Shown one piece after another: positions 17,702-47,065 of a DNA stretch of 64,000 nucleotides (position 1 is its first letter; each line of letters begins with the position of its first letter). The notes beneath the pieces are model-generated. The model had not been told where the DNA came from, searched no databases, and saw only the letters and a program-made list of their open reading frames with translations. The translations under genes and the position numbers were made by a program. The DNA comes from Aquilaria yunnanensis (lineage: Eukaryota; Streptophyta; Magnoliopsida; Malvales; Thymelaeaceae): positions 47,924,501 through 47,988,500 of the forward strand of contig CM077596.1 of NCBI GenBank assembly GCA_039654915.1. The letters run 5' to 3'.

Positions 17702-18299
17702 TGTTGACACTCAATTTCGTTCGACCTTTTTTTTAAAAAAAAAATTAATTAAAAATTAAAAATAATTAAAAAAATTAATTAATTAATTGATTATTATACA
17801 AAGAGAAAGAGAAAATTAAATTAAAATTTTTTGGGGGGGCATTTTGTTAAGTTAATATTTATGTGTGTATATCCAAAAAAAAAATTATTATTATTATTAA
17901 TTAATTATTAATTAATTAATTTTTATTATTACTGAAAAAATTTTAATTAAGGTAATTAGTTTAAAATACATTTTTTTTTATAAGGGTTTTGTTAAAAATG
18001 ACAAAATTGAAAATTTTGGGATAAAAATGACAAAATTGAGAAATTTGGGAAAATTTGACAAAATCTGAAAAATTCCAGGAGAATTTGGAAATTTTTCACA
18101 TCATATTTGGGCCAAACAGACGTTTTGGCCCAAATTGACAGAAAAAGACAAAATTGTCTCAATCAGAAGTTTCAGGAACATCCCCAAAGTCAAAGAGACG
18201 TAAAGGACTAAAACTGTCATTTTACCAAATTAAGAGATAAGTCTGTTTTGAATTAAATTTCAAATTTTTTTAATTAAGGGAATCCAAGGCCCCTTACCC

Positions 18300-18307
18300 T
18301 ATAAATA
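18300..18307 (+). promoter_or_regulatory. TATA box of the 5' LTR
   Basis: TATAAATA in the context CCCTATAAATAGGG, 599 bp into the LTR. It is just upstream of the GC-rich leader-like segment and identical in the 3' LTR, so transcription probably starts about 30 bp downstream. Confidence 0.7.
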
Positions 18308-18974
18308 GGGGGTGAAATCTGCGAAGAAAGGAAGAAAAAAATGAAGATTAGAGCCGTTTAAAAAAAAACAAAAAGAAAACTGTAGAAAAGTCCCTAGCCT
18401 CTGCCTCTTCAGTAAAAAAAAACCTGAACTTTCATTCCTAAACTCTTTTCGCCGTTAGCCTCTCTCGCTGTTTTCGCGCGTTTTCGCGCCTGTCACCCTC
18501 CGTTGTTCGCCGTGCCTCCCTCCTCCGCTCCAGCAGCCGTCTCACCACCTCCGTCGCTCGCCGTACCTCCCTCCTCCGCTCCAGCCGCCGTCTCGCCGCC
18601 TCCGTCGCACGCCGACACCGTCTCCCCCTCTCCTTGCCTTCCGCCGAAATTCTCTCTCTCTCTCACCATTGTTCTCCTCTCTCTTTCTTCCCCCTTCCCT
18701 TGCTGCCGACGCCGTCTCCCCCTCCTCGCCGCCGACGCCATCGCCGCCTCCAGACTTCCCCTTGCTCGCCGTCGCCGTCGCCTCCCCTGCACGCCGTCGC
18801 CGTCGCTTCTATCTCCCGTCGCCCAGGAAGTTTAAAATTTTATTCTTTAGGTAAAATTATGTTTTAATCCTTCATCTTTTTATATTCTTTCATTCAAGTC
18901 AGTAACCTTTTTATTTTGCAGAATTAACATAACTTTTGTGTGATTTATTTATTTGTTCTTATTTTTCTTATTTT

Positions 18975-19440
18975 TTATTTTTTTTTCATGGAAGGTTATA
19001 TTTCCTAATTTTTAGTGGATGACCAAAAAGTCCCACTTTTCTTTATTTATTTAATTTCTGCAATTATTTAATTTGTGCACTTTTATTTTTTATGGAAGGT
19101 TATACCTCCTACTTTTTATTTTTTGAGTCGATGGTCAAAAAGCCCCACTTTTCTTTATTTATTTAATTTCTGTAATTATTTAATTTATGCATTTTTATTT
19201 TTTATAGAAGGTTATACCTCCTATTTTTTATTTTTTTTTAGTGGATGGCCAGAAAGCCCCACTTTTCCATATTTATTTAATTTCTGCAATTATTTAATTA
19301 TGCACTTTTATTTTTTTTATGGAAGGTTACACCTCCTACCTTTTTATTTTTTAAGTGGATGGCAAAAAGCTCCACTTTTCTTTATTTATTTAATTTCCGG
19401 CATTTTACTTTATACAATTTTTATCTTTTTATGTGAATGA
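18975..19440 (+). repeat. Four tandem ~110-bp units in the 5' LTR
   Basis: Each unit contains ATGGAAGGTTAYACCTCC, a T-rich stretch, then GTGGATGGCCAAAAAGCCCC and TTTATTTATTTAATTTCTG. Units start near 18988, 19091, 19202 and 19318. The open frame of 121 codons here (19075-19440) is a repeat artefact. Confidence 0.8.
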
Positions 19441-19964
19441 TTAAACTTATTTCACTTATTTCACTTTTAGTCATAAAAAAAATAATAATAACAAATAAAA
19501 AAAAAGACTCTTTCTTATGTGAATAGTTAACCTTATTCCATTTATTTTTTAGGGTTAATCAAAAATCTATTTTTATTTTTAACAAAGCCCCCATCCTTTT
19601 ATTATTTTAGAACACATATTTTTTTTTCTTATTTCTTTAAAAACAACAAAAATTTAACAAAAAAATCATAACCAAGTGAATTCAAACAAAAAAAAAAAAG
19701 GAGAATTAAATTTTTTTAGTATATATTTTAGATTTATCAATTAGATGTAAGTTTTTAGACTTATAAATTAGAAAACTATTTTAAAATCTTTTATCAAAAA
19801 AAAAAAAGAACAAAATCAAATAAAAAATATATGAATATCAAGACTTTTTTTTAGAAAAACATATAACTATTTGGTTTCTTTATTAAATAATTAAAAAAAA
19901 TCTTGATATTATATAATTAAATAATTACTTTTTGGTTCCCTTATAAATTAAGATCTTTCACCAA

Positions 19965-20165
19965 ACAATCAAAAGAAAAGAAAAAAAAAAGAAAAAAAAA
20001 GAAAAAAAAAGAAAAGAAAGAAAAGAAAAGAAAAAAGAATAAGAAAAAAAAAAGAAAAGAAAGACAAGAAAAGAAAAGAAAAGAAAAAGAATAAGAAAAG
20101 AAAGAAAAGAAGAAAGAAAAAAAGAAAGAAGAAAAAAGAAAGAAAACAAAGAAAAGAAATTAAAA
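19965..20165 (+). repeat. A/G-rich simple repeat in the 5' LTR
   Basis: A run of AAAAGAAAAG-type words. The equivalent tract in the 3' LTR (37880-38090) differs in length and phase, as expected of microsatellite slippage. Confidence 0.85.
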
Positions 20166-20809
20166 AAAATGAAAAAAATAAAAATAATTTTTTTTTCTAA
20201 AAATTAAAATAAGGTAACATTAAAAAAAATTCATAAAAATTATGACAAAAAGATAAATTAATAATTAATTTAATAAAATAAAAATTAAAAATTTAAATTA
20301 CTAATTTCCATATCCGGATAATCCGACAGGATTCATGGTTTGGAAAATAAAAATTAAATATCTAGATAAAAATCCATATTCGGATAATTCGGCAGAATTT
20401 ATGATATGGATTACTAATTAATTGAAATATTTAATAATTAATTAAAAATTTCATCAAATTCCGTGTCCGGATGATTCGATAGAATCCATGGTTCAGAAAC
20501 GTCGAGTTTACTACAAAATTATACAAATTAATTACCAAAGATTTTGAAGATCACATTAATTTAAAAATCCATATCCGACTAATTCAGTTAAAGTTTCTAT
20601 TTGGAAAATTAAGTGAAGTTTATTTAAAAGCAAGCAAAGCAAAATTAAAATCAACTAAGGTACCAATTTTGGGTGTTAAAATAGAGTTATTTTAACGTAA
20701 CCGTACTCCCAAACTTTAGAACTCTCGCAAACCATTTTTAAGGTGTCCAATCGACCTGAGCGAAAACCGATTGGTGGCGACTCCCGAAAACCTGCACGTT
20801 GCCACAGCT

Positions 20810-20828
20810 TGGCGACTCCACTGGGGAC
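20810..20828 (+). promoter_or_regulatory. Primer-binding site (tRNA-Arg type)
   Basis: TGGCGACTCCACTGGGGAC starts 3 bases after the LTR end. It begins with TGG, the complement of CCA, and matches the complement of the 3' end of plant tRNA-Arg(ACG) as I recall it, except for one A/G difference and the last bases. Ogre elements are known to use tRNA-Arg. Confidence 0.8.
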
Positions 20829-21684: not shown

Positions 21685-23350
21685 ATGGCAGAATAAACCA
21701 AAGGATGTCTCATAGATATGGAGTCCAAGATAGAAAGTATGGCCGAACAAATGAGACAATTGATGGAGTTAATCAAGGGGAAAGCAACTCAAGTCCCCGT
21801 CAAAGAACCTTAAGATCCCACTTATCCTCCGGGATTCACCCCACAACAGATATTAGTTCAAGGAAACCTGTTTCAGGAATCAGGTCCGTCCACTAGCGTT
21901 CACCTGAAACAAGACACTGTATATGAAGAGAAGAAGACACTACCAAAGGAAGAAGGAGAATCTCAAAAGTTTGAAACAATAGAGAAGAGACTTCGGGCCA
22001 TTGAAGGAGGCACTATATTCGGATCTCTCTTAGTGGATGACCTCTACTTAGTGCCAGATGTCGTAATCCCCTCAGACTTTAAGGTGCCAGACTTTGTGAA
22101 ATACGATGGAACGAGTGATCCCATCACTCACATCACGTTGTTTCTAAGAAGACTACAACCACTCACAAAATACGAAAAGGTGTGGATTGCACTTTTTCAA
22201 GAAAGCCTTACAAAATCAGCATTACAGTGGTATCTAAGTCAAGGTTCAAGAAACATTAAAACATGGAATGACCTTGCTCAGGACTTCATCAGCAATTGCA
22301 AACATGTTATGGACTTGGCCCCGGATCGCCAAACTCTCCAGAATATGGAAAAGAAAAAGCAAGAAACCTTCAAGGAATACGCTTAAAGGTGGAGGGACTT
22401 AGCTGCACAAGTTCAGCCACCCATGACGGAAAGAGAAATGGTTACTTTATTTGTTCAAACACTAAAGTATCCATATTATGACAAACTCATTGGCAATTCG
22501 GCAACCAATTTCTCAGACGTTGTCATGTCTGGAGAACGAATTGAGCATGGGATTAGAACCGAAAAAATCACTGAGTCCTTTAATGATGCCATGAAAAGAG
22601 GAGGACCATCCAGAAGAAAGGATGAGGAAGTACAACAAATAGGACGAGGAAGAGGGATTCCTTTCGTGGGTACTATGGCTACCGGGCCTCGCCTATCCTA
22701 TTCTACCAATAGGCCCAATGATTATCCTCCCAATAGGCCCAATGATTATCCTCCCAACAAGCCTAATCAGTTACGGACACCTGTTCTGACCCCTCCAGTA
22801 CCTGCACAAAGACCAAGAGAAGTTTTTGCGCCAATTCCCATGACTTACACTGAGTTGTATCCAAAACTCATTGAAAGTCAACTTATCCGCCAAATTCCTA
22901 CAAGGCCATTGGAACCCCCATACCCAAGATGGTATGACCCTAACATAACTTGCCCATATCATGATGGCGTTCCGAGCCATGGCTTGGAAAATTGCATAGC
23001 ATTGAAACGCATAGTCCAACAATTAATAGAGTCAAAATGGTTGGACTTTTCTGATGAACCGAATGTCACTCACAACCCATTGCCACCTTATCAAGCTAAA
23101 CCAGTCAATATGATAGAAGAACACTGGCTGCTAAAGAAGTCAGTCAACGATATCATAACCCCTCTTAAGCATGTATATTCATGCCTTCTGAAAGAAGGGG
23201 TCATCATTTGAAAGTCTTCTTTTAAACATGAAGAAGTCGAAGATAAGGAATGGTGTGATTTTCATGACAGTAAAAGTCATTCTATCTAAGAATGCTCAAA
23301 ATTTCGTGAGAATCTACAAAGACTCATTGACTCATCCCAACTCATCATTT
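21685..23350 (+). pseudogene. Retrotransposon gag region
   Basis: One frame runs from ATG 21685 through gag into protease. The retrotransposon gag domain is at about 22070-22500 (FVKYDGTSDPITHI, ALQWYLSQ, WNDLAQDF, then WRDLAAQVQPPM after a stop). A Pro-rich linker follows with a duplicated NRPNDYPP motif (22700-22770). A Cys/His segment CPYHDGVPSHGLENC near 22950 resembles a zinc-knuckle-like site. In-frame stops lie at 21694, 21811, 22384, 23209 and 23287, while the same frame continues after each, so these are late nonsense changes. The product would form the particle that packages the element RNA. This copy cannot make it whole. Confidence 0.88.
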
Positions 23351-23352
23351 TT

Positions 23353-24384
23353 ATGTCAGATAAAGATGATGATGTGAATGTGATCATTAAAGAACAAGAA
23401 GTCAATGCTATGCCAAGACCACTAGTCATACTAATTTCAAAACCTACTTTTAAGCCTTTAAGAATTCAAGTCCCAAGGCCATTCCCCTACAAATCAGACA
23501 AAGCTGTTCCATGGAGCTATGATTGCACTTCCAACATCACATCAACTCCATTAGAAGTTGGGAGCATGACTAGAAGTGGTTGGTGTTATTCTCTGGAGCA
23601 AATGAACAAGCTCCAACAAGATAAGAACGTTACAGACCCAACAAGTGGACCTCTTGATACAAATACATCCAAAGAGCAAGAAATGCCTCGAGCCGTAACA
23701 GATGAACAAGCTATTGAGTTTCTCAAACTCATAAAGCAAAGTGAGTACAACATCGTGGAGCAGTTAAACCGCCTGCCAGCAAAGATTTCCATACTTTCAT
23801 TACTCTTAAGCTCTGATGCTCATTGAGAAGCCCTCCTCAAAGTCTTGAATAAGGCCTATGTTGAGCAAGATATTTCCGTGAATAATTTTGACCACCTCGT
23901 CAACAACATCATGGCACAGAATCTTATCACATTCACTGACGATGAGATACCAGCAGAAAGAAGGGGTCACTCTAAGGCTCTACATATTTTGGTTAAGTAC
24001 AAAGATCGAATTATGGCTAGAGTTTTTATTGATAATGGGTTAGCTCTAAATGTAATGCCACTTGAAACCTTACACAAGCTTGGTATAGAGCCATCATACC
24101 TCAACAACAGTCATATCATTGTTCGAGCGTTTGATGGGACGAAGAGAGATGTTGTTGGAGAAATAGAGCTGCCAATAGAGATTGGCCCTTGTGTATTCCA
24201 CATCACATTCCAAGTTATGGATATTAATCCTTCTTATACTTGTCTGTTGGGAAGACCATGGATCCATATGGCTGGAGCAATTCCTTCTTCATTACACCAA
24301 AAAATGAAATTCATTATTGAAGGAAAGTTAATCACAGTCTTTGCTGAAGAAGACATTCTGCTATCTAGACCTGCGGATGCTTAA
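23353..24384 (+). pseudogene. Retrotransposon aspartic protease region
   Basis: It continues the gag frame. A linker (23353-23823) ends at a TGA at 23824. The protease fold follows at 23940-24360. The active-site segment reads FIDNGLALNVMP near 24027, so the usual D-T/S-G is D-N-G, a variant I recall from plant gypsy elements. A second core motif, LLGRPWIHMAGA near 24245, is the typical C-terminal signature. The segment ends at TAA 24382, after which the same frame carries the G-patch domain. Its role would be to cut the gag-pol polyprotein. Confidence 0.87.
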
Positions 24385-25145: not shown

Positions 25146-26670
25146 ACCTGAAACTCTCTTTGATGACAATGAAAGAATGAACTTTGATAATCCTGTAAAC
25201 ACCACCGACTCGAATGACGAAGATATTCAAATATCTCCTGAGTTATTAAAAATGATCGAGCAAGATGAAAAAGAAATAGCAACGAGTCAAGAACCAACTG
25301 AGACATTCAACTTGGGAGATAGTCAGGATATAAAAGAAGTCAAGATTGACACTCTATTTCCTCCTGAAGAGAAAGAAAAACTAGTCCACTTATTGAAGGA
25401 ATATGTGGATGTATTTGCTTGGTCATACCAAGATATGCCCGGCTTAAGCTCAAACATAGTGCTACACAAAATACCCTTGAAGCCTGGGGCGAAGCCTGTC
25501 AGACAGAAGTTATGAAGATTAAAGCCGGATCTGATCTTGAGAGTAAAAGATGAGATTCAAAAACTATGGGATGCAGGATTCCTTGGGGTCACTGAATATA
25601 CAGAATGGGTTGTTAATATAGTTCCAGTCGAAAAGAAAGAGAGTGGGAAACTAAGAGTTTGTCAGGACTACCGGCCCTTGAACGAAGCCAGTCCTAAAGA
25701 TAACTCCCCACTTCCTCACATCGATACGCTGGTGGATAATACTGTAGGAAACTCTTACTTTTCTTTCATGGATGGCTTTTCTGGATACAATCAAATCAAA
25801 CTTGATCCAGATGACATGATAAAAACTGCTTTTATTACCTTTTGGGGTACCTTCTACTATAAGGTGATGCCTTTTGGGTTAAAGAATGCTGGTGCTACAT
25901 ATCAAAGAGCCATGGTCGCGTTATTCCATGACATGATGCATAAAGAAATTGAAGTATATGTAGACGACATGATCGCCAAAACTTTCACTGCTGGGGGGCA
26001 TCTAAAAGTGCTAAGAAAACTATTCGATAGACTTCGTAAATATCAACTAAAGTTGAATCTTGCCAAATGTACTTTCAGAGCCTCTTCAGGAAAGTTATTG
26101 GGTTTCATGGTAAGCAAAGATGGGATTCGAGTTGGCCCAAGTAAAGTTAAGGCGATACAAGAAATGCAACCCCCGAAAACTCCAAAACAAGTAAGAAGTT
26201 TTCTGGGCAGAATCAACTTCATAGCAAGATTTATATCACAATTGACGTCCAAGTGTGAACCTCTTTTCAAATCACTAAAGAAGAACAATCCGATCGAGTG
26301 GAATAACAAATGCCAAGAAGCATTCGAGAAAATCAAGCAATATCTATCAAATCCACCAGTCTTGGTACCACCTCGATCTGGAGAACCGTTGATTCTATAT
26401 TTATCCATAAAGGATTCTTCATTAGGATCCGTATTAGGTCAACGTGATGAGACAGACAAGAAAGAGCATGCAATTTACTATTTGAGCAAGAAGCTTACCA
26501 CATATGAAGCGAAATACTCAATAGTAGAAAAGTCCTGTTGTGCCCTTACATAGGTAGCACACCGACTACGACACTACATGCTCAACAACACCACATTGCT
26601 GATCTCCAAGACTGATCCCATTAAGTACATTTTTTAGAAACCCGCTTTATCAGGCAGGATCGCAAAATGG
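25146..26670 (+). pseudogene. Reverse transcriptase and first RNase H region
   Basis: After the acceptor the frame is open to a TGA at 25513, then from there to TAG 26551. RT motifs appear in order: LRVCQDYRPLNEA (~25660), FSFMDGFSGYNQI (~25760), KVMPFGLKNAGATYQRAM (~25863), catalytic YVDD (25957-25968), and the LGFMVS thumb-side motif (~26098). A retroviral-type RNase H remnant follows (EPLILYLSIKDSSLG, then AIYYLSKKLTTYEAKYS), broken by stops at 26551 and 26635. It would copy the element RNA into DNA. The catalytic aspartates are present, but the nonsense codons disable it. Confidence 0.93.
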
Positions 26671-26673
26671 CAA

Positions 26674-27114
26674 ATGCTGTTGTCTGAATATGACATACAG
26701 TATGTCACCCAAAAGGCTGTAAAAGGGAGTGTGATTACTGAATATCTGGCTGATAGAGCATTGGATGATTATGAGCCAATGAGAATGGACTTTCCTAATG
26801 GAGATATAATGACGATAGAACAGGAAGTCTCTGAAGATGATGAAACATGGAAAATGGCATTCGATGGAGCATCTAATGCTTTGGGACAAGGGATTGGAGC
26901 TATACTCATCTCTCCAAGCGGAGAGCAGTTTCCCCTCACAGCAAAAATTACATTTCCTTGTACCAACAATATAGTAGAATATGAGGCATGTGCTATGGGA
27001 CTCCAAATGGCACTAGAATTGAAAGTACGAGATCTCCGAGTTTATGGGGATTCCGCATTAGTCATATATCAAATCAATGGAGAATGGGAGACAAGGGATT
27101 CCAAGGGAAGATAA
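26674..27114 (+). pseudogene. Second RNase H domain of the Tat type
   Basis: It is in frame with RT. Acidic residues of the nuclease centre are visible in MAFDGASN (~26860), NIVEYEACAMG (~26970) and VYGDSALV (~27040). A second, independent RNase H after the degenerate retroviral one is characteristic of the Tat clade. The domain runs into a deletion at about 27105, where the expected ~20-30 residue linker to the PREDNQI segment is missing and the frame changes. Confidence 0.9.
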
Positions 27115-28450
27115 TCAAATTTCGGACGCTGTAGCTACTTTAGCTGCTATGTACAAGATAAGCGACCCTGAGCACACTCCTGTGTTCGAAATGAAAATAA
27201 TAGATTCCCCAACTTATTGCATGAGCATCGAGGAAGAATTGGATGGGAAACCTTGGTATCACGATATCAAGAAATACCTCCAAGAACGAGTGTATCCACT
27301 AGAAGCATCAGAAAATGACAAGAAATTTCTACGAAGACTGTTAATGGGTTTTCTTTTAAACCTAGACATACTTTATAAGAAAACCCCAAACTCAATGCTA
27401 CTTCGCTGTGTAGATGCTCATGAAGCACGAAAGATCATGGAAGAAGTTCATTCTGGAATGTGTGGAGCATACACCAGTGGTCATACCATGGCAAGACAAA
27501 TAATGAGGGCTGGCTACTATTGGCTCACATTGGAAAGTGATTGCATCAATCACGTAAGAAAATGTCACAAATGCCAAATATATGCCAACAAGATCCAGGC
27601 TCCACCCGCTCCTCTTAATGTAACAGCAATACCTTGGATTTTTTCCATGTGGGGAATTGACGTCAATGGAGCCATTACCCCCAAAGCTTCTAATGGTCAC
27701 AAATTCATCCTAGTGGCAATAGACTACTTCACTAAATGGGTAGAAGCTGTGTCTTATGAAAATGTAACTCAAAAGGTGGTATGCCGGTTCATTAAAAAGC
27801 AAATCATTTGTCACTATAGGTTGCCAGAGTGTATTATCTCAGATAATGCCACAAACTTGAACAATGCAATGATGCAGACTTTGTGCCAACAGTTCAAGAT
27901 CAAGCATATCAATTCGGCACCTTATCGACCGATGATGAATGGTGCAGTAGAAGTGGCCAATAAAAATATCAAGAGAATTATTGAGAAGATGATTGTCACT
28001 CACAAGGACTGGCATGAGATGTTACCTTTCGCACTACATGCTTACAGAACTTCTACCCGTATTGCCCATTGAAGTTGAGATTCCTTCATTAAGGGTACTA
28101 ATGGATACCCAATTGAAAGAAGCGGAATGGGTCAAGGTTAGATATGAGCATTAAACCTAATTGATGAAAGAAGAATGACAGCCCTCTGCCATGGGCAGCT
28201 TTATCAAAGGAGGATGATTCACGCTTACAATAAAAAGGTTTGCCCACGACAATTTCATGAAGGTGACATAGTGCTCAAGAAAATTCTACCCATTCAGCAT
28301 GATTCTAGAGGAAAATGGACACCAAACTATGATGGGCCATATGTGCTGAAGAAAGCCTTTCCAGGAGGGGCTCTAATTCTGACAGAAATGGATGGAAGAG
28401 AGCTACCAAAACCAGTAAACTCAGATTCAGTAAAGAAATACTTTGCATAA
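27108..28450 (+). pseudogene. Integrase
   Basis: The frame is open from the deletion to 28072. The HHCC zinc domain (HSGMCG, HTMARQI, CHKCQIY, 27448-27590) is followed by the DDE core: D in WGIDVNG (~27655), D in IISDNATN (~27835), and E in NGAVEVANKNIKR (~27940). After HAYRTSTR a deletion and frameshifts damage the core-to-C-terminal junction (28050-28170). The C-terminal domain (28175-28450) is readable again, with FHEGDIVLKK, GKWTPNYDGPYVLKK and a terminal KKYFA. No chromodomain is seen. It would insert the cDNA into the genome. Confidence 0.92.
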
Positions 28451-29781: not shown

Positions 29782-30330
29782 ATGGATCCTATTCTTTCTG
29801 CCTTGCGAAAATATTTTCCTTCTCTCCCGATGAACATTCTTAAAAAAATCTACCGAGTTCGCTGTGAACGATTAAGAGTTTTGATGCATAAAGGAATCCC
29901 TAAAGATGTGCGATGGTTAATTGAAGCTAAGGTTCGGCTGGCAGGTGAAATCCTAGAGGTATTTGTGTCTCACATGCCTGCCATAGGCAAAAGCTCTTAT
30001 GCCGAAAAATGAAGAGCAAAAAGGCTAGCTGTTTGTCATAAATGCAGACAATGGACTTGCAATACTAAATGTCGTTCTTTAGGAATGATCTCTAAAAATC
30101 GAGAAGATAAAATACAATTCATCAAGAATGGCCTGAGTAAGGACTCATTGGATGATATCCGATTGACTATTGAGACGCATTCTTGTGGATCAGTGCAACG
30201 CGAACTTCTTGGTTTATGGAGTATTTTTCACGAAGAACAAGAGCATTATAGCCCTAGGAATCTGACTTTAAAAGACCCTGTTTGCCAGTTTATAAGAAAA
30301 CTGGATGGGAAGCAAATCCCCGACTCATAG
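29782..30330 (+). pseudogene. Cys-cluster basic protein, copy 1 (one in-frame TGA)
   Basis: A 182-codon frame from ATG 29782 to TAG 30328 has a single TGA at 30010. The N-terminal part is helical and hydrophobic/basic (ALRKYFPSLPMNILKKI). After the TGA come Arg/Lys residues followed by a cluster CHKCRQWTCNTKC, then NREDK..FIKNGL and a C-terminal region ending PVCQFIRKLDGK. I do not recognise a host family. The order of a Ser-Tyr-Ala-Lys basic patch, immediate Cys cluster and D-x3-F-x3-G segment recalls the cysteine-rich nucleic-acid-binding proteins of plant flexiviruses (carlavirus/vitivirus type). That is an inference from pattern memory. Apart from the TGA the frame is clean, unlike gag-pol. 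Confidence 0.7.
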
Positions 30331-30617: not shown

Positions 30618-31166
30618 ATGGATTCTACTCTTTCTGCCCTGCGAAAGTACTTTCCTTCTCTTCCAATAAATGTTCTTAAAAAGATCTACCATGCTAGATG
30701 TGAAAGAATCAGAGTTTTTATACGCAAAGGCGTTCCTGACAATGTGCAGTGGATAATTGAAGCTAAGGTCCGTTCGGCTGGTGAAGTTGCAGATGCATTT
30801 ATGCCTCGTATGCCCGGCTTAGTTAAAAGCGCTTATGCCAAAAAATGAAGAGCAAAGAGGCTAGGCGTCTGTCATAAATCTGGAAGATGGAATTGCAATA
30901 CTAAATGCCGCTCTTTAGGATACATCTCCAAAAATCGCGAAGATAAAAGAAAATTCATTAAGAATGGCCTGCGTAAGGAATCTCTGGAAGATATCCGAGG
31001 GACTCTTGAAATGCATTCTTGCGGAATAGTACAACTCAAAATAGTCGATTTATGGATGACTTATCATAAAGAACGAGACCGTTACAGTTTTGGGAATCTG
31101 ACTTTAAAAGACCCTGTTTGCCAGTTTATAAGAAAACTGGATGGGAAGCAAATCCCCGACTCATAG
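30618..31166 (+). pseudogene. Cys-cluster basic protein, copy 2 (one in-frame TGA)
   Basis: A 182-codon frame from ATG 30618 to TAG 31164, with a TGA at 30846 in exactly the position seen in copy 1. The rest of the frame is open. The cluster reads CHKSGRWNCNTKC, so the second Cys of copy 1 is Ser here. NREDKRKFIKNGLRKES and DPVCQFIRKLDGK are conserved. The shared TGA means either that units 1 and 2 duplicated after the mutation, or that the codon is tolerated or read through. Copy 3 has AGA there. Confidence 0.7.
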
Positions 31167-31432: not shown

Positions 31433-31966
31433 ATGGAGTCTTCTATTTCCACCCTACGAAAGTATTTTCCTTCCCTCCCAATAAATGTTCTTAAAAAGAT
31501 TTATCAAGCTAGATGTGAACGATTCAGAGTATTTATGCACAAAGGCATTCCTGATAATGTGCAGTGGCTAATCGAAGCTAAGGTTCGTTCGGCTGGTGAA
31601 GTTCCAGATGCATTCTTCCCCCGTATGCCCGGCTTTGGTAAAAGCGCTTATGCCAAAAAGAGAAGAGCAAGGAGGCTAGGCATCTATCGTAATTGTGGAT
31701 GGTGGATTTGTGGCACAAAATGTCGTTCTTCAGGGATGATCAACAGAAATCGTGAAGATAGAAGAAAATTCATTAAGAATGGCCTGCGTAAGGAATCTCT
31801 GGAGGATATCCGAGAGATTCTTGAAGCGCACTCTTGCGGAATGGTGCAATTTGAGATTGTCGGTTTATGGATGACTTTCCAAAAAGAACGAGATCGTTAC
31901 AGTCCTGGGAATCTGACTTTAAACGACCATGTTTGCCAGTTTGTAAGAAAACTGGAAGGGATGTAA
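31433..31966 (+). CDS. Intact small basic Cys-cluster protein (177 aa), copy 3
   Basis: The only uninterrupted copy: ATG 31433 to TAA 31964. Residues 1-65 are a hydrophobic/basic helical part (STLRKYFPSLPINVLKKI). Residues 73-85 are a strongly basic patch (SAYAKKRRARRLG), followed directly by a Cys segment (NCGWWICGTKC; the first Cys of copies 1-2 is Arg-Asn here). Residues 100-115 contain NREDRRKFIKNGLR. The C-terminus is truncated relative to copies 1-2 by a TAA. No signal peptide or membrane segment is evident. It lies in the retrotransposon cargo region with a TATA-bearing spacer upstream. The product is not recognised as a host protein. Resemblance in layout to flexivirus cysteine-rich nucleic-acid-binding proteins, some of which suppress RNA silencing, is inferred. 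Function is unknown. Confidence 0.72.
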   Translation: MESSISTLRKYFPSLPINVLKKIYQARCERFRVFMHKGIPDNVQWLIEAKVRSAGEVPDAFFPRMPGFGKSAYAKKRRARRLGIYRNCGWWICGTKCRSSGMINRNREDRRKFIKNGLRKESLEDIREILEAHSCGMVQFEIVGLWMTFQKERDRYSPGNLTLNDHVCQFVRKLEGM

Positions 31967-32410
31967 ATCGCCAATTCATAGAAGGCATTGAAGCCGTTAT
32001 TGGACGTAAAGCCAGTGGAAGACGTAAACCAAAGTCATGACTACTATACATGTTAGCTGTCGCTTTTGAAAATTTTCTTCTGACAATAATGTTCCTACTC
32101 CTGATGTGAGCTACAGTCATGACTACTGTACATGTTAGTTGTCGCTTTTGAAAATTTTCTTCCGACAATAATGTACCTACTCCTGATGTGAGCTATAGTC
32201 ACTACTACTGTACATGCTAGCTGTCATATTTGAAAATTTTCCTTCTTTCCCGACAATCGTGCTAGCAGCCATTTTGGAAAATTTCCTCCCCTTTTGGCAA
32301 TAATGTACCACTCCTGACATGAGTCATAGTCACGACTACTGTGTATAGCTGCCACTTTTGAAAATTTTCCTTCTCTTCCAGCAATAATGTACCTACTCTT
32401 AAAAATATAA
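31967..32410 (+). repeat. ~80-bp tandem repeats upstream of the LOG gene
   Basis: Four or five diverged units contain GACTACTGTACATG.TAG, CTGTCGCTTTTGAAAATTTTC and ACAATAATGTACCTACTC (units near 32030, 32105, 32190, 32325). They match the spacer found after each cargo ORF (for example 30375-30450), so the LOG gene sits behind an amplified version of the same spacer. Confidence 0.75.
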
Positions 32411-32433: not shown

Positions 32434-32441
32434 TATAAATA
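32434..32441 (+). promoter_or_regulatory. TATA box before the LOG-type gene
   Basis: TATAAATA in CTTCATCTCTATAAATATATC, 43 bases before the chosen ATG. It resembles the TTTCATC.CTATAAATG block of the preceding cassettes. It implies a very short leader if used. Confidence 0.5.
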
Positions 32442-32476
32442 TATCATCTTCATTTCTCAAAAGGATAAGGATAGGA

Positions 32477-33106
32477 ATGGAGAAAACCTCAACTCGTAAG
32501 TCCCGAAGTATTTGTGTATTTTCTGGGGCTTTTCCTGGAAAAGATGAAGTGTACTTAAAGGCAGCCAACCATTTGGGTAGAGTATTAGCCGAGCGAAAAA
32601 TACATTTAGTTTATGGAGGAGGTAGTGTCGGATTAATGGGAGGCGTAGCATCAGTAGCATCTTTAGGAGGAAGTCAAGTTCTGGGCATTATCCCTGGACC
32701 GTTGAAGTTTGTTTCTGGGGGCACGATCGGAGAAGAGCTAGTGGTAAAAAATCTGCAAGAGCGTTTGTTACAAATGCTTTCTAACGCTGATGCTTTTATC
32801 GCTCTACCCGGTGGTTTTGGCACATTGGGAGAGGTCTTTCAAATTGCTTCCATGGCCCAACTTAATTTGCATAAGAAACCCATTGGGCTGTTGAATGTTA
32901 ACAATTTCTTTACAGGCCTGATATCTTTTGTGGATTATGCTGTGCAAAAGAATTTTATATCGATAGTGGCACGACAAATCCTAATATCCGCAAAAACTGC
33001 TGAAGAATTGCTTGATAAAATGCAAGCTTTTGTTCCTGAACCAGATTCAGCAATGATTCAGATAGACTGGACACGCCAGTCTTTCCCGACCAATTCAATC
33101 CCATAA
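32477..33106 (+). CDS. LOG-type cytokinin riboside 5'-monophosphate phosphoribohydrolase, intron-less
   Basis: A 209-residue intact frame. LOG enzymes release active cytokinin bases from their riboside 5'-monophosphates in one step. Seen here: a Rossmann-like start (SICVFSGAFPGKDEVY, 11-26), YGGGSVGLMG at 46-55, Arg96 in LQERLLQM where the family has its catalytic Arg, and PGGFGTLGE at 111-119 with the catalytic Glu119 of the PGGxGTxxE signature. KKPIGLLNV is at 133-141. The Lys after Arg96 in the family motif is Leu, a notable change. Length fits the family (about 210-220). The start is the ATG at 32477, since the open frame upstream (32414) is AT-rich leader. Host LOG genes have several introns and this has none, as expected for cDNA capture. 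It lies between integrase and 3' LTR on the element's strand. Whether it is expressed or active is unknown. Confidence 0.9.
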   Translation: MEKTSTRKSRSICVFSGAFPGKDEVYLKAANHLGRVLAERKIHLVYGGGSVGLMGGVASVASLGGSQVLGIIPGPLKFVSGGTIGEELVVKNLQERLLQMLSNADAFIALPGGFGTLGEVFQIASMAQLNLHKKPIGLLNVNNFFTGLISFVDYAVQKNFISIVARQILISAKTAEELLDKMQAFVPEPDSAMIQIDWTRQSFPTNSIP

Positions 33107-34609: not shown

Positions 34610-35465
34610 CATACAAATTTCGCTAGAGGTCTTAAGGAAAGCTCCTTAGCCTCACTCAATCAATCAATTTTCCTTCAACGATAGGACAGCTCCTATCGCC
34701 GAGGTTCTAAGGATGGAACCTTAACCTCGAAATCAATCAATCAATTTTCCTTCAACGGTAGGACAGCTCCTATCCCCGAGGTTCTAAGGATGGAACCTTA
34801 ACCTCAAAATCAATCAATCAATTTTCCTTCAACGATAGGACAGCTTCTATTGCCGAGGTCCTAAGGAAAGCTCATTAGCCTCAAACTCAATCAATTTTCC
34901 TTCAACGATAGGACAGCTCCTATCGCCGAGGTCCTAAGGAAAGCTCCTTAGCCTCAAACTCAATCAATTTTCCTTCAACGATAGGACAGCTCCTATCGCC
35001 GAGGTCCTAAGGAAAGCTCCTTGGCCTCAAACTCAATCAATTTTCCTTCAACGATAGGACAGCTCCTATCGCCGAGGTCATAAGGAAAGCTCTTTAGCCT
35101 CAAACTCAATCAATTTTCCTTCAACAATAGGATAGCTCTTATCGCCGAGGTCCTAAGGAAAGCTCCTTAGTCTCAAACTCAATCGATTTTCCTTCAATGA
35201 TAGGACAGCTCCTATCACCGAGGTCCTAAGGAAAGCAACTCAATCAATTTTCCTTCAATGATAGGACAGCTACTATCGCCGAGGTCCTAAGGAAAGCTCC
35301 TTAGCCTCAAACTCAATCAATTTTCTTTCAACGATAGGACAACTCCTATCGCCGGGGTTCTAAGTATGGAACCTTAACCTCGAAATCAATCAATCAATTA
35401 ATTTTCCTTCAACGATAGGAGAGTTCCTATCGCAGAGGTTCTAAGGAAAGTTCCTTAACCTCAAA
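34610..35465 (+). repeat. Hairpin-forming tandem array (~75-bp unit, about 11 copies)
   Basis: Units run CAATCAATTTTCCTTCAA, then CGATAGGACAGCTCCTATCG, then GAGGTCCTAAGGAAAGCTCC and TTAGCCTCAAACT. The second word is a perfect 8-bp stem with a CAGC loop. The third and fourth form an 11-bp stem with a 2-base bulge. Unit starts are near 34665, 34742, 34818, 34887, 34965, 35037, 35110, 35184, 35245, 35318 and 35398. Tat/Ogre 3' regions are known to carry such arrays and to seed satellites. Confidence 0.9.
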
Positions 35466-35584
35466 AAGGAGGAGGAAAAGGTTTTTCTCCTCAGGGTTTA
35501 GGCGGCGAGAAAGTTCTCAATGCCTAGCTAAGTCGAACGAAATTTGGTAACTAGTTTGCATACATCATGTCCCATGAAGCATGC
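35466..35584 (+). other. Short sequence between tandem array and polypurine tract
   Basis: No coding features are seen. It contains a G/A-rich stretch (GGAGGAGGAAAAGG) that could be a secondary polypurine tract. Confidence 0.4.
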
Positions 35585-35596
35585 AAAGGGGGGCAG
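35585..35596 (+). promoter_or_regulatory. Polypurine tract
   Basis: AAAGGGGGGCAG lies immediately before the 3' LTR and is the expected plus-strand primer. Confidence 0.8.
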
Positions 35597-36894
35597 TTGA
35601 TGACACCCAATTTCTTCCGACCTTTTTTTTTTTTAAAAAAATTAATTAAAAATTAAAAATAATTAAAAAATTTTAATTAATTAATTGATTATTATACAAA
35701 GAGAAAGAGAAAATTAAATTAAAAAGTTTTGGGGGGGCATTTTGTTAAGTTAATATCTATGTGTGTATATAAAAAAAATATTATTATTATTAATTAATTA
35801 TTAATTAATTAATTTTTATTATTACTGAAAAAATTTTAATTAAGGTAATTAGTTTAAAATACATTTTTTTTATAAGGGTTTTGTTAAAAATGATATATGT
35901 GTGTATATATGTATGTATGAAATACAAAAGAAAACTCCATAAAAAATGACAAAATTGAAAAATTTGGGATAAAAATGACAAAATTGAGAAATTTGGGAAA
36001 ATTTGACAAAATCTGAAAAATTCCAGGAGAATTTGGTAATTTTTGACGTCATTTTTGGGCCAAACAGACAAAATTGGGAATTAAATTGTCTTAATCAGAA
36101 GTTTCAAGAACATCCCTAAAGTCAAAGAGACATAAAGGACTGAAACTGTTATTTCACCAAATTAAGAGATAAGTTTGTTTTGAATTAAATTTCAAATTTT
36201 TTTAATTAAGGGAATCCAAGGCTCCTTACCCTATAAATAGGGGGTGAAATCTGCAAAGAAAGGAAGAAAAAAATGAAGATTATAGCCGTTTTAAAAAAAC
36301 AAAAAAGAAAACTGTAGAAAAGTCCCTAGCCTCTGCCTCTTCACTAAAAAAAAAACCTGAACTTTCATTCCTAAACTCTTTTCGCCGTTAGCCTCTCTCG
36401 CCGTTTTCGGGCGTTTTCGCGCCTGTCACCATCCGTCGCTCGCCGTGCCTCCCTCCTCCGCTCCAACAGCCGTCTCACCACCTCCGTCGCTCTCCGTACC
36501 TCCCTCCTCCGCTCCAGCTGCCGTCTCGCCGACGCCGTCTCCCCATCTCCTCGCCTTCCGCCGAAATTCTCTCTCTCTCTCACCGTTGTTCTCCTCTCTT
36601 TTTCTTCCCCTTCCCCTTGCCGCCGACGCCGTCTCCCCCTCCTCGCCGACGACGCCATCACCGCCTCCAGACTTCCCCTTGCTCGTCGTCGCCGTCGCCT
36701 CCCCTGCACGCCGTCACCGTCGCTTCTATCTCCCGTCGCCCAGGAAGTTTAAAATTTTATTCTTTAGGTAAAATTGTGTTTTAATCCTTCATCTTTTTAT
36801 ATTCTTTCATTCAAGTCACTAACCTTTTTATTTTGCAGAATTAACACTAACTTTTGTGTGATTTATTTATTTGTTCTTATTTTTCTTTATTTTT

Positions 36895-37345
36895 ATTTTT
36901 TTTTCATGGAAGGTTATACCTCCCAATTTTTAGTGGATGACCAAAAAGTCCCACTTTTCTTTATTTATTTAATTTCTGTAATTATTTAATTTATGCACTT
37001 TTATTTTTTATGGAAGGTTATACCTCCTACTTTTTATTTTTTGAGTGGATGGCCAAAAAGCCCCAATTTTCTTTATTTATTTAATTTCTGCAATTATTTA
37101 ATTTATGCATTTTTATTTTTTATGGAAGGTTATACCTCATATTTTTTATTTTTTTTTTAGTGGATGGCCAAAAAGCCCCACTTTCCATATTTATTTAATT
37201 TCTGCAATTATTTAATTATGCACTTTTATTTTTTTATGGAAGGTTACACCTCCTACCTTTTTATTTTTTAAGTGGATGGCAAAAAGCTCCATTTTCTTTA
37301 TTTATTTAATTTCCGGCATTTTACTTTATACAATTTTTATCTTTT
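36895..37345 (+). repeat. Four tandem ~110-bp units in the 3' LTR
   Basis: Copy of the array at 18975-19440, with unit starts near 36904, 37010, 37120 and 37236. Confidence 0.8.
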
Positions 37346-37879
37346 TATGTGAATGATTAAACTTATTTCACTTATTTCACTTTTAGTCATAAAAAAAATA
37401 ATAATAACAAATAAAAAAAAGAAGAGTCTTTCTTATGCGAATACTTAACCTTATTCTATTTATTTTTTAGGGTTAATCAAAAATCTATTTTTATTTTTAA
37501 CAAAGCCCCCATCCTTTTATTATTTTGGAACACATATTTTTTTTCTTATTTCTTTAAAAACAACAAAAATTTAACAAAAAAATCATAACCAAATGAATTC
37601 AAACCAAAAAAAAAAGGGAGAATTAAATTTTTTTAGTATATATTTTAGATTTATCAATTAGATGTAAGTTTTTAGACTTATAAATTAGAAAACTATTTTA
37701 AAATCTTTTATCAAACAAAAAGAACAAAATAAAATAAAAAATATATGAATATCAAGACTTTTTTTTAGAAAAATATATAACTCTTTGGTTTCTTTATTAA
37801 ATAATTAAAAAAAATCTTGATATTAGATAATTAAATAATTACTTTTTGGTTCCTTTATAAATTAAGATCTTTCACCAAA

Positions 37880-38090
37880 CAATCAAAAGAAAAGAAAAAA
37901 GAAAAGAAAAAAGAAGAAAAAAAAAGAAAAGAAAGAAAATAAAAGAAAAAGAAAAGAAAAAAGAATAAGAAAAAAAAAGAAAAGAAAGAAAAGAAAAGAA
38001 AAGAAAAGAAAAAGAATAAGAAAAAAGAAAAGAAAAAGAAAAGAAAGAAAAGAAGAAAGAAAAAAAGAAAGAAAAGAAATAAAAAAAATA
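37880..38090 (+). repeat. A/G-rich simple repeat in the 3' LTR
   Basis: AAAAGAAAG-type run corresponding to 19965-20165 in the 5' LTR. Confidence 0.8.
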
Positions 38091-38743
38091 AAAAAAAATT
38101 GAAAAAAATAAAAATAGAAATTTTTTTCTAAAAATTAAAATAAGTTAACATTAAAAATAAAAAAAATTCATAAAAATTATGACAAAAAGATAAATTAATA
38201 ATTAATTTAATAAAATAAAAATTAAAAATTTAAATTACTAATTTCCATATCCGGATAATCCGACAGGATTCACGGTTTGGAAAATAAAAATTAAATATCT
38301 AGATGAAAATCCATATTCGGATAATTCGGCAGAATTTATGATATGGATTAGTAATTAATTAAAATATTTAATAATTAATTAAAAATTTCATCAAATTCCG
38401 TGTCTGGGTGATTTGATAGAATCCATGGTTCGGAAACGTCGAGTTTACTACAAAATTATACAAATTAATTACCAAAGATTTTGAAGATCACATTAATTTA
38501 AAAATCCATATCCGACTAATTCAGTTAAAGTTTCTATTTTGAAAATTAACTGAAGTTTATTTAAAAGCAAGCAAAGCAAAATTAAAATCAACTAAGGTAC
38601 CAATTTTGGGCATTAAAATAGAGTTATTTTAACGTAACCGTATTCCCGAATTTTAGAACTATCGCAGACCATTTTTAAGGTGTCCAATCGACCTGAGCGA
38701 AAACCGATTGGTGGCGACTCCCGAAAACCCGCACGTTGCCACA

Positions 38744-39522: not shown

Positions 39523-41586
39523 TTATGCAGTAGAATATCCAAGATGTGCCATAAGAAGAGCAACATAGGTAAGTAGCTCTCCACCTTCCTTGAGGTGTTG
39601 AGCGTGCTCTTTCCAAGAACAGCGAATAGCTGCGTAGGCAAGTAAGTCCGCCCAAGCGTGACTGATTCTCTCCCATTTCTCTTGGTAATCCAAGCGTCCA
39701 TACAATGACAAATTCCTCAGAATACGTGACAAAAAAATTACGGACCCTTGCACAGTGGAGTTGAATAAGTGCTCCTGAGCAATGTCACGTAGCGCTATTG
39801 CTGGATGATCATTTGGATTAGCATTGCCACCTGAAGCGAAAGATAGGATGGAGTATAATGCATTGCAATATTCAATTTTTGCAACTTCCGAGGCCTTGGA
39901 TTTATCATAAACAACCTTTGACTGGATATATGTGTCTTTGTTGATCACATCCGCGATTCCCATTGGCAGCATCCCTGGACGGACCAATAACAAGTACATC
40001 ATGTAGTCTGACAGCCGTTTGCTGATTCCAGAGCCTTGTCTACCCAGATATTCTATCGAGTATTGGGGAACCTCAATATTGTATAAGATGTTTGTGGCAA
40101 GGTGGAAAACAAAGATGAACTCAACGAAACCAGTAGCCAAATGCTCAGCCCAGTCAAAATCATAATATAAATATAAGTTAAAATGATGATTGATTATATC
40201 GGACACCAAGTCCTTTTCACTTCTTTCACGAAGAAATTTAGGGTAGCTTTCAAGATCAGTCACATGGGAATGGATAAATGTCTTCAAGTCAGCGTCCACA
40301 ATCTCCCAATGGGAATTCCATAGTATCCTTATCATGTTGTTGGGATCAAGAAAGTTTGTGAGGCTCCGGCCCAAGCAATATTGCTTTATCAGGTCATGTT
40401 GCCCCATCGACATTTTCTTCTCCCTCAACACCATATGCCTTAACCTCGCCCTAAGTATGGGCAAACGATCTATTAGCTTGCGACTTGCCTTCACCAATGA
40501 CCAAGTTGAGAAGAAACGCATGGCAGTTGAGAGGCATTCAAGAAGAATAGCCCCCAAAAGCAGTAAATATGATAGAAAGATATTGGCTGCTCCATAGTCG
40601 TAACGGTGATGATGCCTCACAATCATAAACGAAAATACTGAGAGTGAGAAAATGGCAGAGAGCACACTTAAGGCATTGCTATAATTCCCAAATTTCCTGA
40701 TATGTATTGGGATCTTGGTATAAAGAGAGTCATAGAGTAATGCCAATTCAATCTCCATTGCTTTGAAAGAATCTTCGGGAGTTTTGTGCAAAGCATGTAG
40801 GATGTCTGGATCCATGTCTTTCAAAATGTGTGAAGCAGCAGAGAAGCCAAAAAACAAAGGCCTAAATAGCATGAATGACAAGTAAGAGTTACGAAGGAAT
40901 CGCTGCTCCTTGTTTTTTGACTCCAGCAAGTAGTCCTTCATTCCTTTCTTATCTCTCCATCCAATTCCCTTAATTACTTTTCCTTCACCAAAAAACAACC
41001 GATCCACCAACTGTTTATCGCTGGCTGACCGAAGGGCATATACCCTCTCTCCATATTTGATCAAACCAACAATCAGGATGGGTGCAGCCATGAATTTGAC
41101 TGTAGTGTCAGCATCAATTCCAAAGTTGTAGGAAATATAAAGGGCCTCTGACACATGAATCACATAGCCAAGCAGATGTCGAATCCAAATTTGGTTGTCC
41201 TCAAGTGAGTAAGCGGTCACATTATAAGGGCTGCCAAGATGCCATAGCAAAAAAGGTGTCCATAACACCACCAAGGACTTGTTTGATTCCACTTTGGCCC
41301 TTAGAAGAGCACTGAGAGTGATGGTCGCTATCAAATCTGCTAGCAAATATGTCAAGTAGACCACACTTGACACCAGCGGAAAGAACCCTCCAATCTTCCT
41401 CTTTCGGAAATGCCCCGAGATCACTAGAAAATACTGAAAGCTGAGGCTCAAAATCATCATTAAGTGCACCTCCCATTTTCTCCAGTACACTTGGATTTCA
41501 TCAGTTGTTGCCCTCTCTAAAGCCATATCCTTTATCCAAACCAATATTTCAGAGCTCATAACTGAAATACATACGAATGGATCCAT
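39523..41586 (-). CDS. DUF4220/DUF594 family membrane protein (687 aa)
   Basis: An uninterrupted 687-residue frame and the best candidate for a live host gene. Residues 35-60, 70-95, 105-120 and 165-177 are hydrophobic, giving a multi-pass N-terminal membrane region. DUF4220 hallmarks are visible: YLTYLLADLIATITL (78-92), LWTPFLLWHLGSP (108-120) and TAYSLEDNQIWIRHLLGY (124-141). Two more membrane helices lie near 305-325 and 333-355. The C-terminal DUF594 signature is HAWADLLAYAAIRC and GGELLTYVALLMAHLG, with Ala where Trp is usual. The family is plant-specific and often clustered, and its biochemical role is not known. An alternative start at Met21 is possible. Its 3' end lies only 358 bp from CACTA 1. 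Confidence 0.93.
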   Translation of the reverse strand: MDPFVCISVMSSEILVWIKDMALERATTDEIQVYWRKWEVHLMMILSLSFQYFLVISGHFRKRKIGGFFPLVSSVVYLTYLLADLIATITLSALLRAKVESNKSLVVLWTPFLLWHLGSPYNVTAYSLEDNQIWIRHLLGYVIHVSEALYISYNFGIDADTTVKFMAAPILIVGLIKYGERVYALRSASDKQLVDRLFFGEGKVIKGIGWRDKKGMKDYLLESKNKEQRFLRNSYLSFMLFRPLFFGFSAASHILKDMDPDILHALHKTPEDSFKAMEIELALLYDSLYTKIPIHIRKFGNYSNALSVLSAIFSLSVFSFMIVRHHHRYDYGAANIFLSYLLLLGAILLECLSTAMRFFSTWSLVKASRKLIDRLPILRARLRHMVLREKKMSMGQHDLIKQYCLGRSLTNFLDPNNMIRILWNSHWEIVDADLKTFIHSHVTDLESYPKFLRERSEKDLVSDIINHHFNLYLYYDFDWAEHLATGFVEFIFVFHLATNILYNIEVPQYSIEYLGRQGSGISKRLSDYMMYLLLVRPGMLPMGIADVINKDTYIQSKVVYDKSKASEVAKIEYCNALYSILSFASGGNANPNDHPAIALRDIAQEHLFNSTVQGSVIFLSRILRNLSLYGRLDYQEKWERISHAWADLLAYAAIRCSWKEHAQHLKEGGELLTYVALLMAHLGYSTA

Positions 41587-46880: not shown

Positions 46881-46927
46881 TTTAGTAAATTAATTTATAC
46901 ACAAAATAAAAACATATTATATTGCCT

Positions 46928-46967
46928 TATATAATAATAATAATAAAACACAAATGATTATTATTGC

Positions 46968-47009
<42 letters not shown>

Positions 47010-47011
47010 TC

Positions 47012-47062: not shown

Positions 47063-47065
<3 letters not shown>

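What the first reader, a model, noticed from the sequence alone, without database searches (positions are those of the whole stretch)
32477..33106. Intact intron-less LOG cytokinin-activation gene inside an Ogre-like retrotransposon
The open frame has the LOG signatures YGGGSVGLMG and PGGFGTLGE and the catalytic Arg and Glu positions. It lies on the element's own strand between integrase and the polypurine tract, enclosed by the two LTRs. Host LOG genes normally contain several introns and this has none, which fits capture through RNA. A retroelement that could make active cytokinin would have a route to influence host cell division. The frame is uninterrupted while gag-pol has at least ten stops. 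With roughly one lesion per 500 bases in gag-pol, a clean 630-base frame could still survive by chance about a quarter of the time, so selection is not proven.
Basis: partly seen in the sequence, partly recalled or inferred. Interest (0 to 1): 0.9.

Follow-up and report, generated by a model that had tools for sequence, protein, structure and literature searches.

The report
Plant retrotransposon with virus-like and hormone genes
An abundant plant jumping gene carries, besides its copying machinery, several copies of a gene related to plant-virus nucleic-acid-binding proteins and a gene of the kind that activates the growth hormone cytokinin, and natural selection has preserved both, so the element may influence the cells it lives in.

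Summary
The LOG frame (32477-33106) is real, intact and inside a 21-kb Tat/Ogre-type Ty3/gypsy element (LTRs 17702-20806, 35598-38743). It is a family trait, not a one-off capture: LOG sequence sits in place in 10 of 10 sampled copies picked by integrase and 10 of 10 picked by the neighbouring gene (window included). Changes shared between copies show purifying selection (w 0.16-0.19); private changes in copies not picked by LOG are looser (w 0.50-1.03, by data set).

Upstream of LOG stand 2-4 tandem genes for a basic zinc-finger protein related to carlavirus/allexivirus nucleic-acid-binding proteins, a class that includes RNA-silencing suppressors. They too are under purifying selection. All 20 LOG-picked loci examined carry them; 12 of those 20 lack RT-integrase but keep the virus-like genes and LOG. 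A TATA-like box stands 40-48 bp before LOG in 21 of 21 copies. Of 120 related LOGs listed, 104 end in an LxLxL repressor-type tail; none of 120 LOG1/3/8-type host LOGs does; this genome's copies lack it.

A LOG (YgdH) domain in Citrus and poplar LTR elements was already reported; my searches found no report of the virus-like partner. Function is inferred, not tested.

The parts
17702..20806 (+). 5' LTR (TG...CA)
   Evidence: blastn and alignment against 3' LTR, K80 0.044
20810..20828 (+). primer-binding site, tRNA-Arg-like (assignment recalled; PMC9289625 states the Ogre PBS is antisense to tRNA-Arg)
   Evidence: sequence read
22033..23211 (+). gag, broken into at least two frames
   Evidence: PF03732 E 4.4e-06 on 22033-22386; frames
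23845..24384 (+). protease
   Evidence: PF13650 E 8.2e-4, below cut-off
25537..26553 (+). reverse transcriptase + RNase H
   Evidence: PF00078, PF17919, PF17917
26674..27114 (+). additional RNase H (aRH) between RH and integrase
   Evidence: PF13456 E 3.5e-11
27077..28450 (+). integrase, in two frames
   Evidence: PF00665, PF17921 on 27077-28072; C-terminal piece 28175-28450 kept in relatives
29782..30330 (+). virus-like nucleic-acid-binding gene (NABP), copy type d, one stop inside
30618..31166 (+). NABP, copy type c, one stop inside; end from the length of relatives
31433..31966 (+). NABP, copy type a, open frame of 177 aa; first zinc-finger Cys replaced
32021..32398 (+). about 82-bp tandem repeats in front of LOG
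32434..32443 (+). TATA-like box 43 bp upstream of the LOG ATG
   Evidence: TATAA[AT] at -40 to -48 in 21 of 21 LOG copies
32477..33106 (+). LOG gene (cytokinin riboside 5'-monophosphate phosphoribohydrolase family), 209 aa, intact
34660..35480 (+). 73-bp tandem repeats between LOG and 3' LTR
   Evidence: D2, D3
35585..35593 (+). polypurine tract
   Evidence: sequence read
35598..38743 (+). 3' LTR

Best explanation
Shown: a high-copy Tat/Ogre-type retrotransposon carries an accessory cassette between integrase and the 3' LTR, made of 2-4 tandem genes related to viral nucleic-acid-binding proteins (basic stretch plus zinc finger) followed by an intron-less LOG. Changes shared between copies show purifying selection on both kinds of gene, derivatives without reverse transcriptase and integrase keep them, and TATA-like boxes stand before LOG and most NABP copies. 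Inferred: the genes are transcribed from their own internal promoters. The NABPs blunt RNA silencing of the element, as related viral proteins do. LOG releases free cytokinin from its nucleotide precursor and pushes the cell towards a dividing, meristem-like state. Together they make cells permissive and raise the chance that new copies reach the germ line.
For: LOG: Pfam, PDB and fold matches, motif complete; PGGxGTxxE and Arg kept in 8 of 8 full-length integrase-picked copies. Position: 20 of 20 LOG-picked loci (of 150 scored) have 2-4 NABPs upstream; 10 of 10 NABP-picked loci, window included, have LOG sequence downstream; 10 of 10 integrase-picked loci have LOG sequence. Selection on LOG: shared changes N32/S60, w 0.16, against private N47/S14, w 1.03, in eight NABP-picked copies (p 2.6e-7); in 17 copies, the window's and 16 not picked by LOG, w 0.19 shared, 0.50 private (p 0.003). 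NABP: shared N106/S146 against private N188/S88 (p 2e-9); between types w 0.23-0.35; pol-less set shared w 0.22. Viral kinship: Carla_C4 in 19 of 19 and Viral_NABP in 18 of 19 aligned members at E <= 1, best 2e-7 and 2.8e-8. Mandarivirus and allexivirus proteins of this class share the NLS-plus-zinc-finger layout (PMC12172455, section 5), and some suppress silencing (PMC12172455 abstract; PMC10219291, PMC8742542 passages). TATA: 21 of 21 LOG starts, 45 of 66 NABP starts, background 525 of 6,000. Acer yangbiense P0149 is a gene model running from NABP into LOG, so the arrangement is not confined to this species.
Against: No RNA, protein or enzyme data. The window's own NABP Pfam hits are below the gathering scores (E 0.008 and 0.025), and its intact copy has lost one zinc-finger cysteine. 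The NABP model is poor (pLDDT 49), so kinship rests on sequence profiles. 21 of 66 NABP starts have no TATA match, and copies are related, so counts are not independent. Private changes are not uniformly neutral: w 0.50 in the set not picked by LOG, 0.47-0.71 by NABP type and 0.14 in LOG-picked copies, the last being biased by the choice of similar proteins. Among 8 integrase-picked copies alone changes are too few to judge (shared N3/S5, private N6/S5). L034, one of the pol-less examples, has Lys for the motif Glu, and 2 of 9 NABP-picked LOGs have lost the PGG motif and 3 of 9 the Arg. No shown link between element activity and cytokinin or cell division.
Confidence: 0.5

Rival explanations
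1. The NABPs serve the element directly as nucleic-acid chaperones, RNA-packaging, RNA-export or transcription-activating factors, not as silencing suppressors; LOG is kept for its effect on host cells or nucleotide metabolism.
For: NABPs are basic zinc-finger proteins kept in pol-less derivatives, which fits a role acting on the element's own RNA or LTR. Section 5 of PMC12172455 says the viral NLS and ZF motifs resemble those of eukaryotic transcription factors.
Against: Nothing tested separates these roles; the property of the viral class most often named in the passages read is silencing suppression (PMC10219291, PMC8742542).
Confidence: 0.3
2. LOG works in the element not through cytokinin but as a nucleotide-processing enzyme (for example on AMP-like monophosphates) or, in other plants, as a carrier of a corepressor-recruiting tail.
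For: LOG-family structures with bound AMP (titles of 5zbk, 5zbl, 3sbx). 104 of 120 relatives end in LxLxL, 102 of them with basic residues just before it; 0 of 120 host LOGs do.
Against: This genome's copies lack the tail yet keep LOG under purifying selection, with the phosphoribohydrolase motif complete in 8 of 8 full-length integrase-picked copies.
Confidence: 0.15
3. Passenger: LOG and NABP ride along without function.
For: Older copies carry lesions in LOG: of 9 non-window NABP-picked loci, 4 have one stop in the main match (one of them ends at residue 151) and a fifth has a frame break with stops.
Against: Shared changes w 0.16-0.24 for both genes; open frames in 8 of 10 integrase-picked copies; retention when pol is lost.
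Confidence: 0.03
4. The LOG is a separate later insertion or a host gene trapped between two unrelated LTRs.
For: Imperfect target-site duplication.
Against: Same gene order in the loci examined by LOG, NABP or integrase.
Confidence: 0.01

Closest known systems
LTR-retrotransposon consensuses with a YgdH (LOG) domain in Citrus sinensis, C. clementina and, with a filter off, Populus trichocarpa (PMC9289625, passages read; citing Steinbauerova et al. 2011, not held here)
   Same: A LOG-type domain inside LTR elements of eudicots; a poplar protein named LOGL10 (P0022) falls in the same clade as the window LOG.
   Different: Those passages give presence only; here position, selection, TATA boxes, the virus-like partner genes and the pol-less derivatives are described.
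Phalaenopsis Ogre-related elements with an AlkB RNA-demethylase ORF (PMC9289625, abstract and passages read)
   Same: Giant Tat-family element with an acquired enzyme gene kept through replication; a class of domain also found in some flexiviruses.
   Different: Different enzyme; here two unrelated accessory genes, one in tandem array.
Viral nucleic-acid-binding / cysteine-rich proteins of carlaviruses, allexiviruses and mandariviruses (Pfam PF01623, PF05515)
   Same: Basic stretch followed by a short zinc finger; profile matches in 19 of 19 and 18 of 19 aligned members.
   Different: Encoded in a chromosomal retrotransposon as 2-4 tandem copies; direction of transfer unknown.
Retand elements with antisense TRP28 ORFs between pol and 3' LTR (PMC11963269, passages read)
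   Same: Long pol-3'LTR region with accessory ORFs and tandem repeats.
   Different: Here the genes are in sense orientation and carry LOG and NABP domains.

Membership tests
LOG / cytokinin riboside 5'-monophosphate phosphoribohydrolase, type I | PGGxGTxxE motif and aligned Arg | tested here: met
   PGGFGTLGE at 111-119, Arg 96 in the aligned place
LOG / cytokinin riboside 5'-monophosphate phosphoribohydrolase, type I | fold of solved LOG structures | tested here: met
   model pLDDT 86; TM(target) 0.92-0.95 to 2a33, 1ydh, 5zbk
LOG / cytokinin riboside 5'-monophosphate phosphoribohydrolase, type I | enzyme activity on cytokinin nucleotides | not testable with these tools
   needs protein
Tat/Ogre clade of Ty3/gypsy retrotransposons | second RNase H between RH and INT | tested here: met
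   PF13456 on 26674-27114, between PF17917/PF17919 and PF00665; rule from PMC6317226 passages (Ogre and Retand)
Tat/Ogre clade of Ty3/gypsy retrotransposons | PBS antisense to tRNA-Arg (Ogre) | tested here: inconclusive
   PBS read at 20810-20828; pairing with a tRNA not computed, assignment recalled
Tat/Ogre clade of Ty3/gypsy retrotransposons | extra ORF upstream of gag (plant mobile domain in 57% of Ogre, PMC6317226 passages; its place upstream of gag is recalled) | tested here: not met
   no ORF of 80 aa or more between 20806 and 22033; not present in all Ogre elements, so not decisive
Tat/Ogre clade of Ty3/gypsy retrotransposons | RT-RH-INT phylogeny | not tested
   no reference set at hand
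Viral NABP / Carla_C4 | profile match above Pfam cut-off | tested here: inconclusive
   window copy 16.5 and 15.0 bits, below 23 and 20.9; aligned members down to E 2e-7 and 2.8e-8; precomputed PF01623 in 31 of 32 listed homologues
Viral NABP / Carla_C4 | basic stretch plus zinc finger | tested here: met
   [KR][KR]RRA[KR] in 26 of 31 and C-x2-C-x4-C-x3-C exactly in 17 of 31 homologues, some of them partial, P0149 left out; window copy lacks the first Cys
Viral NABP / Carla_C4 | silencing suppression | not testable with these tools
   needs assay

The most novel reading that the evidence does not exclude
A plant retrotransposon lineage carries a two-part host-manipulation kit: tandem copies of a virus-type silencing-suppressor-like protein and a hormone-activating enzyme, which in most listed relatives also bears a basic plus LxLxL tail able to recruit the TOPLESS corepressor. 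The kit is more indispensable than the element's own polymerase, since common derivatives have dropped pol and kept the kit. The element would thus work as a chromosomal analogue of a cell-transforming virus, inducing silencing-poor, dividing cells through which it reaches the germ line.
Probability: 0.3. Interest if true: 0.93.

Novelty: new variant of a known kind. Interest (0 to 1): 0.78.

Why it matters
Accessory genes of plant Ty3/gypsy elements most often lack known domains (so PMC9289625, passage). Here one is a recognisable hormone enzyme and its partner is kin to viral silencing suppressors, both under measurable selection in a family with thousands of candidate copies, so the question 'do plant retrotransposons manipulate hormone state and silencing?' becomes testable with two small proteins. 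It also shows a gene class shared between plant RNA viruses and a retrotransposon, and warns that some proteins annotated 'LOGL10' in poplar may belong to transposons.

Tried and rejected
Separate-insertion and passenger ideas were rejected. Structure prediction of NABP gave a poor model (pLDDT 49), so no fold search was made with it. Viral contigs gave no NABP relative, although 49 stretches matched a pattern, and only distant LOG relatives (26-32% identity) in 30 loci, not looked at further. A DNA pattern for the host LOG motif gave 0 hits, perhaps because an intron splits it. Which host LOG paralogue gave rise to the element clade was not settled: host sampling held mainly LOG1/LOG3- and LOG8-type proteins. 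Of 120 + 120 proteins listed I used 30 + 18 in the tree, which has some long branches and one bacterial root. Rows called 'element' there, other than the window's, are inferred to be element-borne from clade, tail and copy number, not from context. L018 was dropped from the LOG count (match ends at residue 151); with it, private changes are N86/S26, w 1.01. L069 and L073 were left out (edge fragment; frame breaks). Of 121 integrase places I fetched 10, of 150 LOG places 20. The species of the genome was not identified. Paper searches with no relevant hit: (held no paper, 915 papers held at least two of six terms and the 40 listed showed none of the NABP terms), on a carlavirus protein, also held none; brought only papers found elsewhere or unrelated. 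Steinbauerova 2011 and Fujita 2018 (PMC6638135) are not held (one search used a wrong DOI).

Full report
What was checked. The frame at 32477-33106 codes for 209 residues without interruption, belongs to the LOG family by Pfam (PF03641, 106 bits) and by sequence and fold against Arabidopsis and bacterial LOG structures, and keeps the phosphoribohydrolase motif. It lies inside an element bounded by LTRs at 17702-20806 and 35598-38743. LTR divergence is K80 0.044, which at commonly used rates (recalled: 6.5e-9 to 1.3e-8 per site and year) means roughly 1.7-3.4 million years. The flanking five bases match at three of five positions only.

Element type. RT, RH, a second RNase H and integrase follow in that order. 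PMC6317226 (passages read) gives this position of the second RNase H as typical of Ogre and Retand. The PBS looks tRNA-Arg-like (recalled). I saw no frame of 80 aa or more between LTR and gag, so an upstream ORF is absent or decayed. No RT tree was made.

A family trait. Searching the window's own 842-Mb genome gave 3,659 loose LOG candidates; the 150 scored were full length and 149 had no stop, but these are the copies most like the query. Loose candidates for NABP were 9,378 and for integrase 21,432, which will include other element families. Context was read in three differently chosen samples. Of 20 LOG-picked loci (of 150), 20 have two to four NABP genes directly upstream on the same strand. 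Of 10 NABP-picked loci (the window among them), 10 have LOG sequence downstream; of the other nine LOGs, four have a stop (one of these also ends at residue 151) and a fifth a frame break. Of 10 integrase-picked loci (of 121 listed, all with a 1,144-aa pol frame), 10 have LOG sequence at the expected distance: eight cover residues 1-205 or 1-209 without a stop, one has frame breaks, one is an edge fragment with a stop. So the members examined do have LOG at this position. Copies without LOG elsewhere in the genome are not excluded.

The partner genes. The stretch between integrase and LOG holds three repeats spaced 815-836 bp. The third holds an intact 177-aa frame. Its homologues (32 at E <= 0.01) carry precomputed Pfam Carla_C4 in 31 of 32 rows. 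Scanned one by one, 19 of 19 aligned members hit Carla_C4 (best 2e-7) and 18 of 19 hit Viral_NABP (best 2.8e-8) at E <= 1, while the window copy itself is below both cut-offs. The proteins have a basic run followed by a short zinc finger. PMC12172455 (abstract and section 5 read) describes an NLS and a zinc-finger motif in mandarivirus and allexivirus cysteine-rich proteins, and suppressor activity for one mandarivirus protein. PMC10219291 and PMC8742542 (passages read) call carlavirus CRPs silencing suppressors. In the window, copies c and d have a stop each and copy a has lost one cysteine: this element is a decaying member of its family.

Pol-less derivatives. In 8 of the 20 LOG-picked loci RT, RH or integrase is present. 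In 12 of 20 it is absent from the stretch held, and all 12 share a piece of about 3.3 kb (as measured in L030; only partly held in some) upstream of the NABPs; gag or protease remains are seen before it in 10 of the 12 (L021 and L027 show none in the stretch held). L030 and L034 each have three open NABP frames and an open LOG frame without pol, though L034 has Lys for the motif Glu. Intact pol also exists: many integrase hits lie in open frames of 1,144 aa.

Motif upkeep. PGGxGTxxE is present in 19 of 20 LOG-picked, 7 of 9 NABP-picked and 8 of 8 full-length integrase-picked copies; the Arg is lost in 3 of the 9 NABP-picked copies.

Selection. Pairwise, window LOG against 20 copies gives w 0.10-0.20, but those copies were chosen by protein similarity; their private changes also look constrained (N7/S15, w 0.14), which I ascribe to that choice. 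With eight loci chosen by NABP, private changes (N47, S14) give w 1.03 and shared changes (N32, S60) w 0.16, Fisher p 2.6e-7 (the shared class includes LOG-picked copies). Using only 17 copies, the window's and 16 not chosen by LOG: shared w 0.19 (N27, S44), private w 0.50 (N57, S35), p 0.003. The 8 integrase-picked copies alone are too alike to judge (shared N3/S5, private N6/S5). For NABP in LOG-picked loci plus window: shared N106/S146, private N188/S88, p 2e-9, private w 0.47-0.71 by type; between types w 0.23-0.35; shared w 0.22 in the pol-less and 0.19 in the pol-bearing set, private 0.42 in both. Copies are related and counts are not independent, so p values are guides. The pattern is constraint on shared changes and weaker or no constraint on private ones, as expected if the genes matter while the lineage transposes and decay after insertion.

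TATA boxes. A TATAA[AT] box lies 40-48 bp before the LOG ATG in 21 of 21 copies, and 30-130 bp before 45 of 66 NABP starts, against 525 of 6,000 random points in the same loci. Some boxes lie in a shared repeat module (D16). Transcription was not tested.

Relatives. Proteins most like the window LOG come from Reevesia, Paulownia, Populus, Xanthoceras, Diplodiscus, Parasponia and unnamed contigs, several with many member sequences. In a tree of 50 rows, 31 of this type stand on one side of a 100/97 branch and 18 host LOGs, a conifer's among them, on the other. An Acer yangbiense gene model, P0149, runs from NABP into LOG. 104 of the 120 listed relatives have LxLxL in the last 16 residues, 102 of them with basic residues just before it; none of 120 host LOGs, mainly of LOG1/LOG3 and LOG8 type, does, though 6 have LxLxL elsewhere. 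The element LOGs seen in this genome lack the tail: of 150 matches to P0005, all but one stop at residue 200 or 201 of 217, and one at 202. LxLxL as an EAR/TOPLESS-recruiting motif is recalled knowledge.

What is known. PMC9289625 (abstract and passages read) reports a YgdH (LOG) domain in LTR consensuses of two Citrus species and, with a filter off, poplar, 'in line with' Steinbauerova 2011, which I could not read. My searches listed nothing on a NABP in a retrotransposon; that is weak evidence of absence, since most subscription papers are not held.

Judgement. LOG capture as such is known; the LOG plus tandem virus-like cassette, its selection, its survival without pol and the LxLxL tail appear new as far as I could search. 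The mechanism, silencing relief plus cytokinin release, is the best single reading but untested.

Noticed in passing
L021, L025-L028, L030, L031, L033-L036, L038: A derivative subfamily without RT/RH/integrase in the stretch held keeps the NABP array and LOG, with a shared stretch of about 3.3 kb upstream and, in 10 of 12, gag or protease remains before it.
   Followed up: partly
proteins P0001-P0120: 104 of 120 LOG relatives end in LxLxL (EAR-like), 102 with basic residues before it; 0 of 120 host LOGs do; the copies seen in the window genome lack it.
   Followed up: partly
window 39523-41586 (-): DUF4220/DUF594 host-type gene (687 aa, Pfam 211 bits) just downstream of the 3' LTR.
   Followed up: no
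window 15120-17696 and 46862-49698: Inverted repeat arms (pieces of 71-328 nt, 76-92% complementary) enclose the element and the DUF4220 gene: a diverged inverted duplication of the left flank.
   Followed up: no
P0022, P0052, P0089 (Populus): Database proteins named LOGL10 in poplar are among the LOGs most like the window's and carry the LxLxL tail, so they may be transposon genes annotated as host genes; only P0022 was placed in the tree.
   Followed up: partly
window 34660-35480: 73-bp tandem repeats between LOG and the 3' LTR; L030 and L034 have repetitive frames in their downstream stretch that look similar in kind.
   Followed up: no
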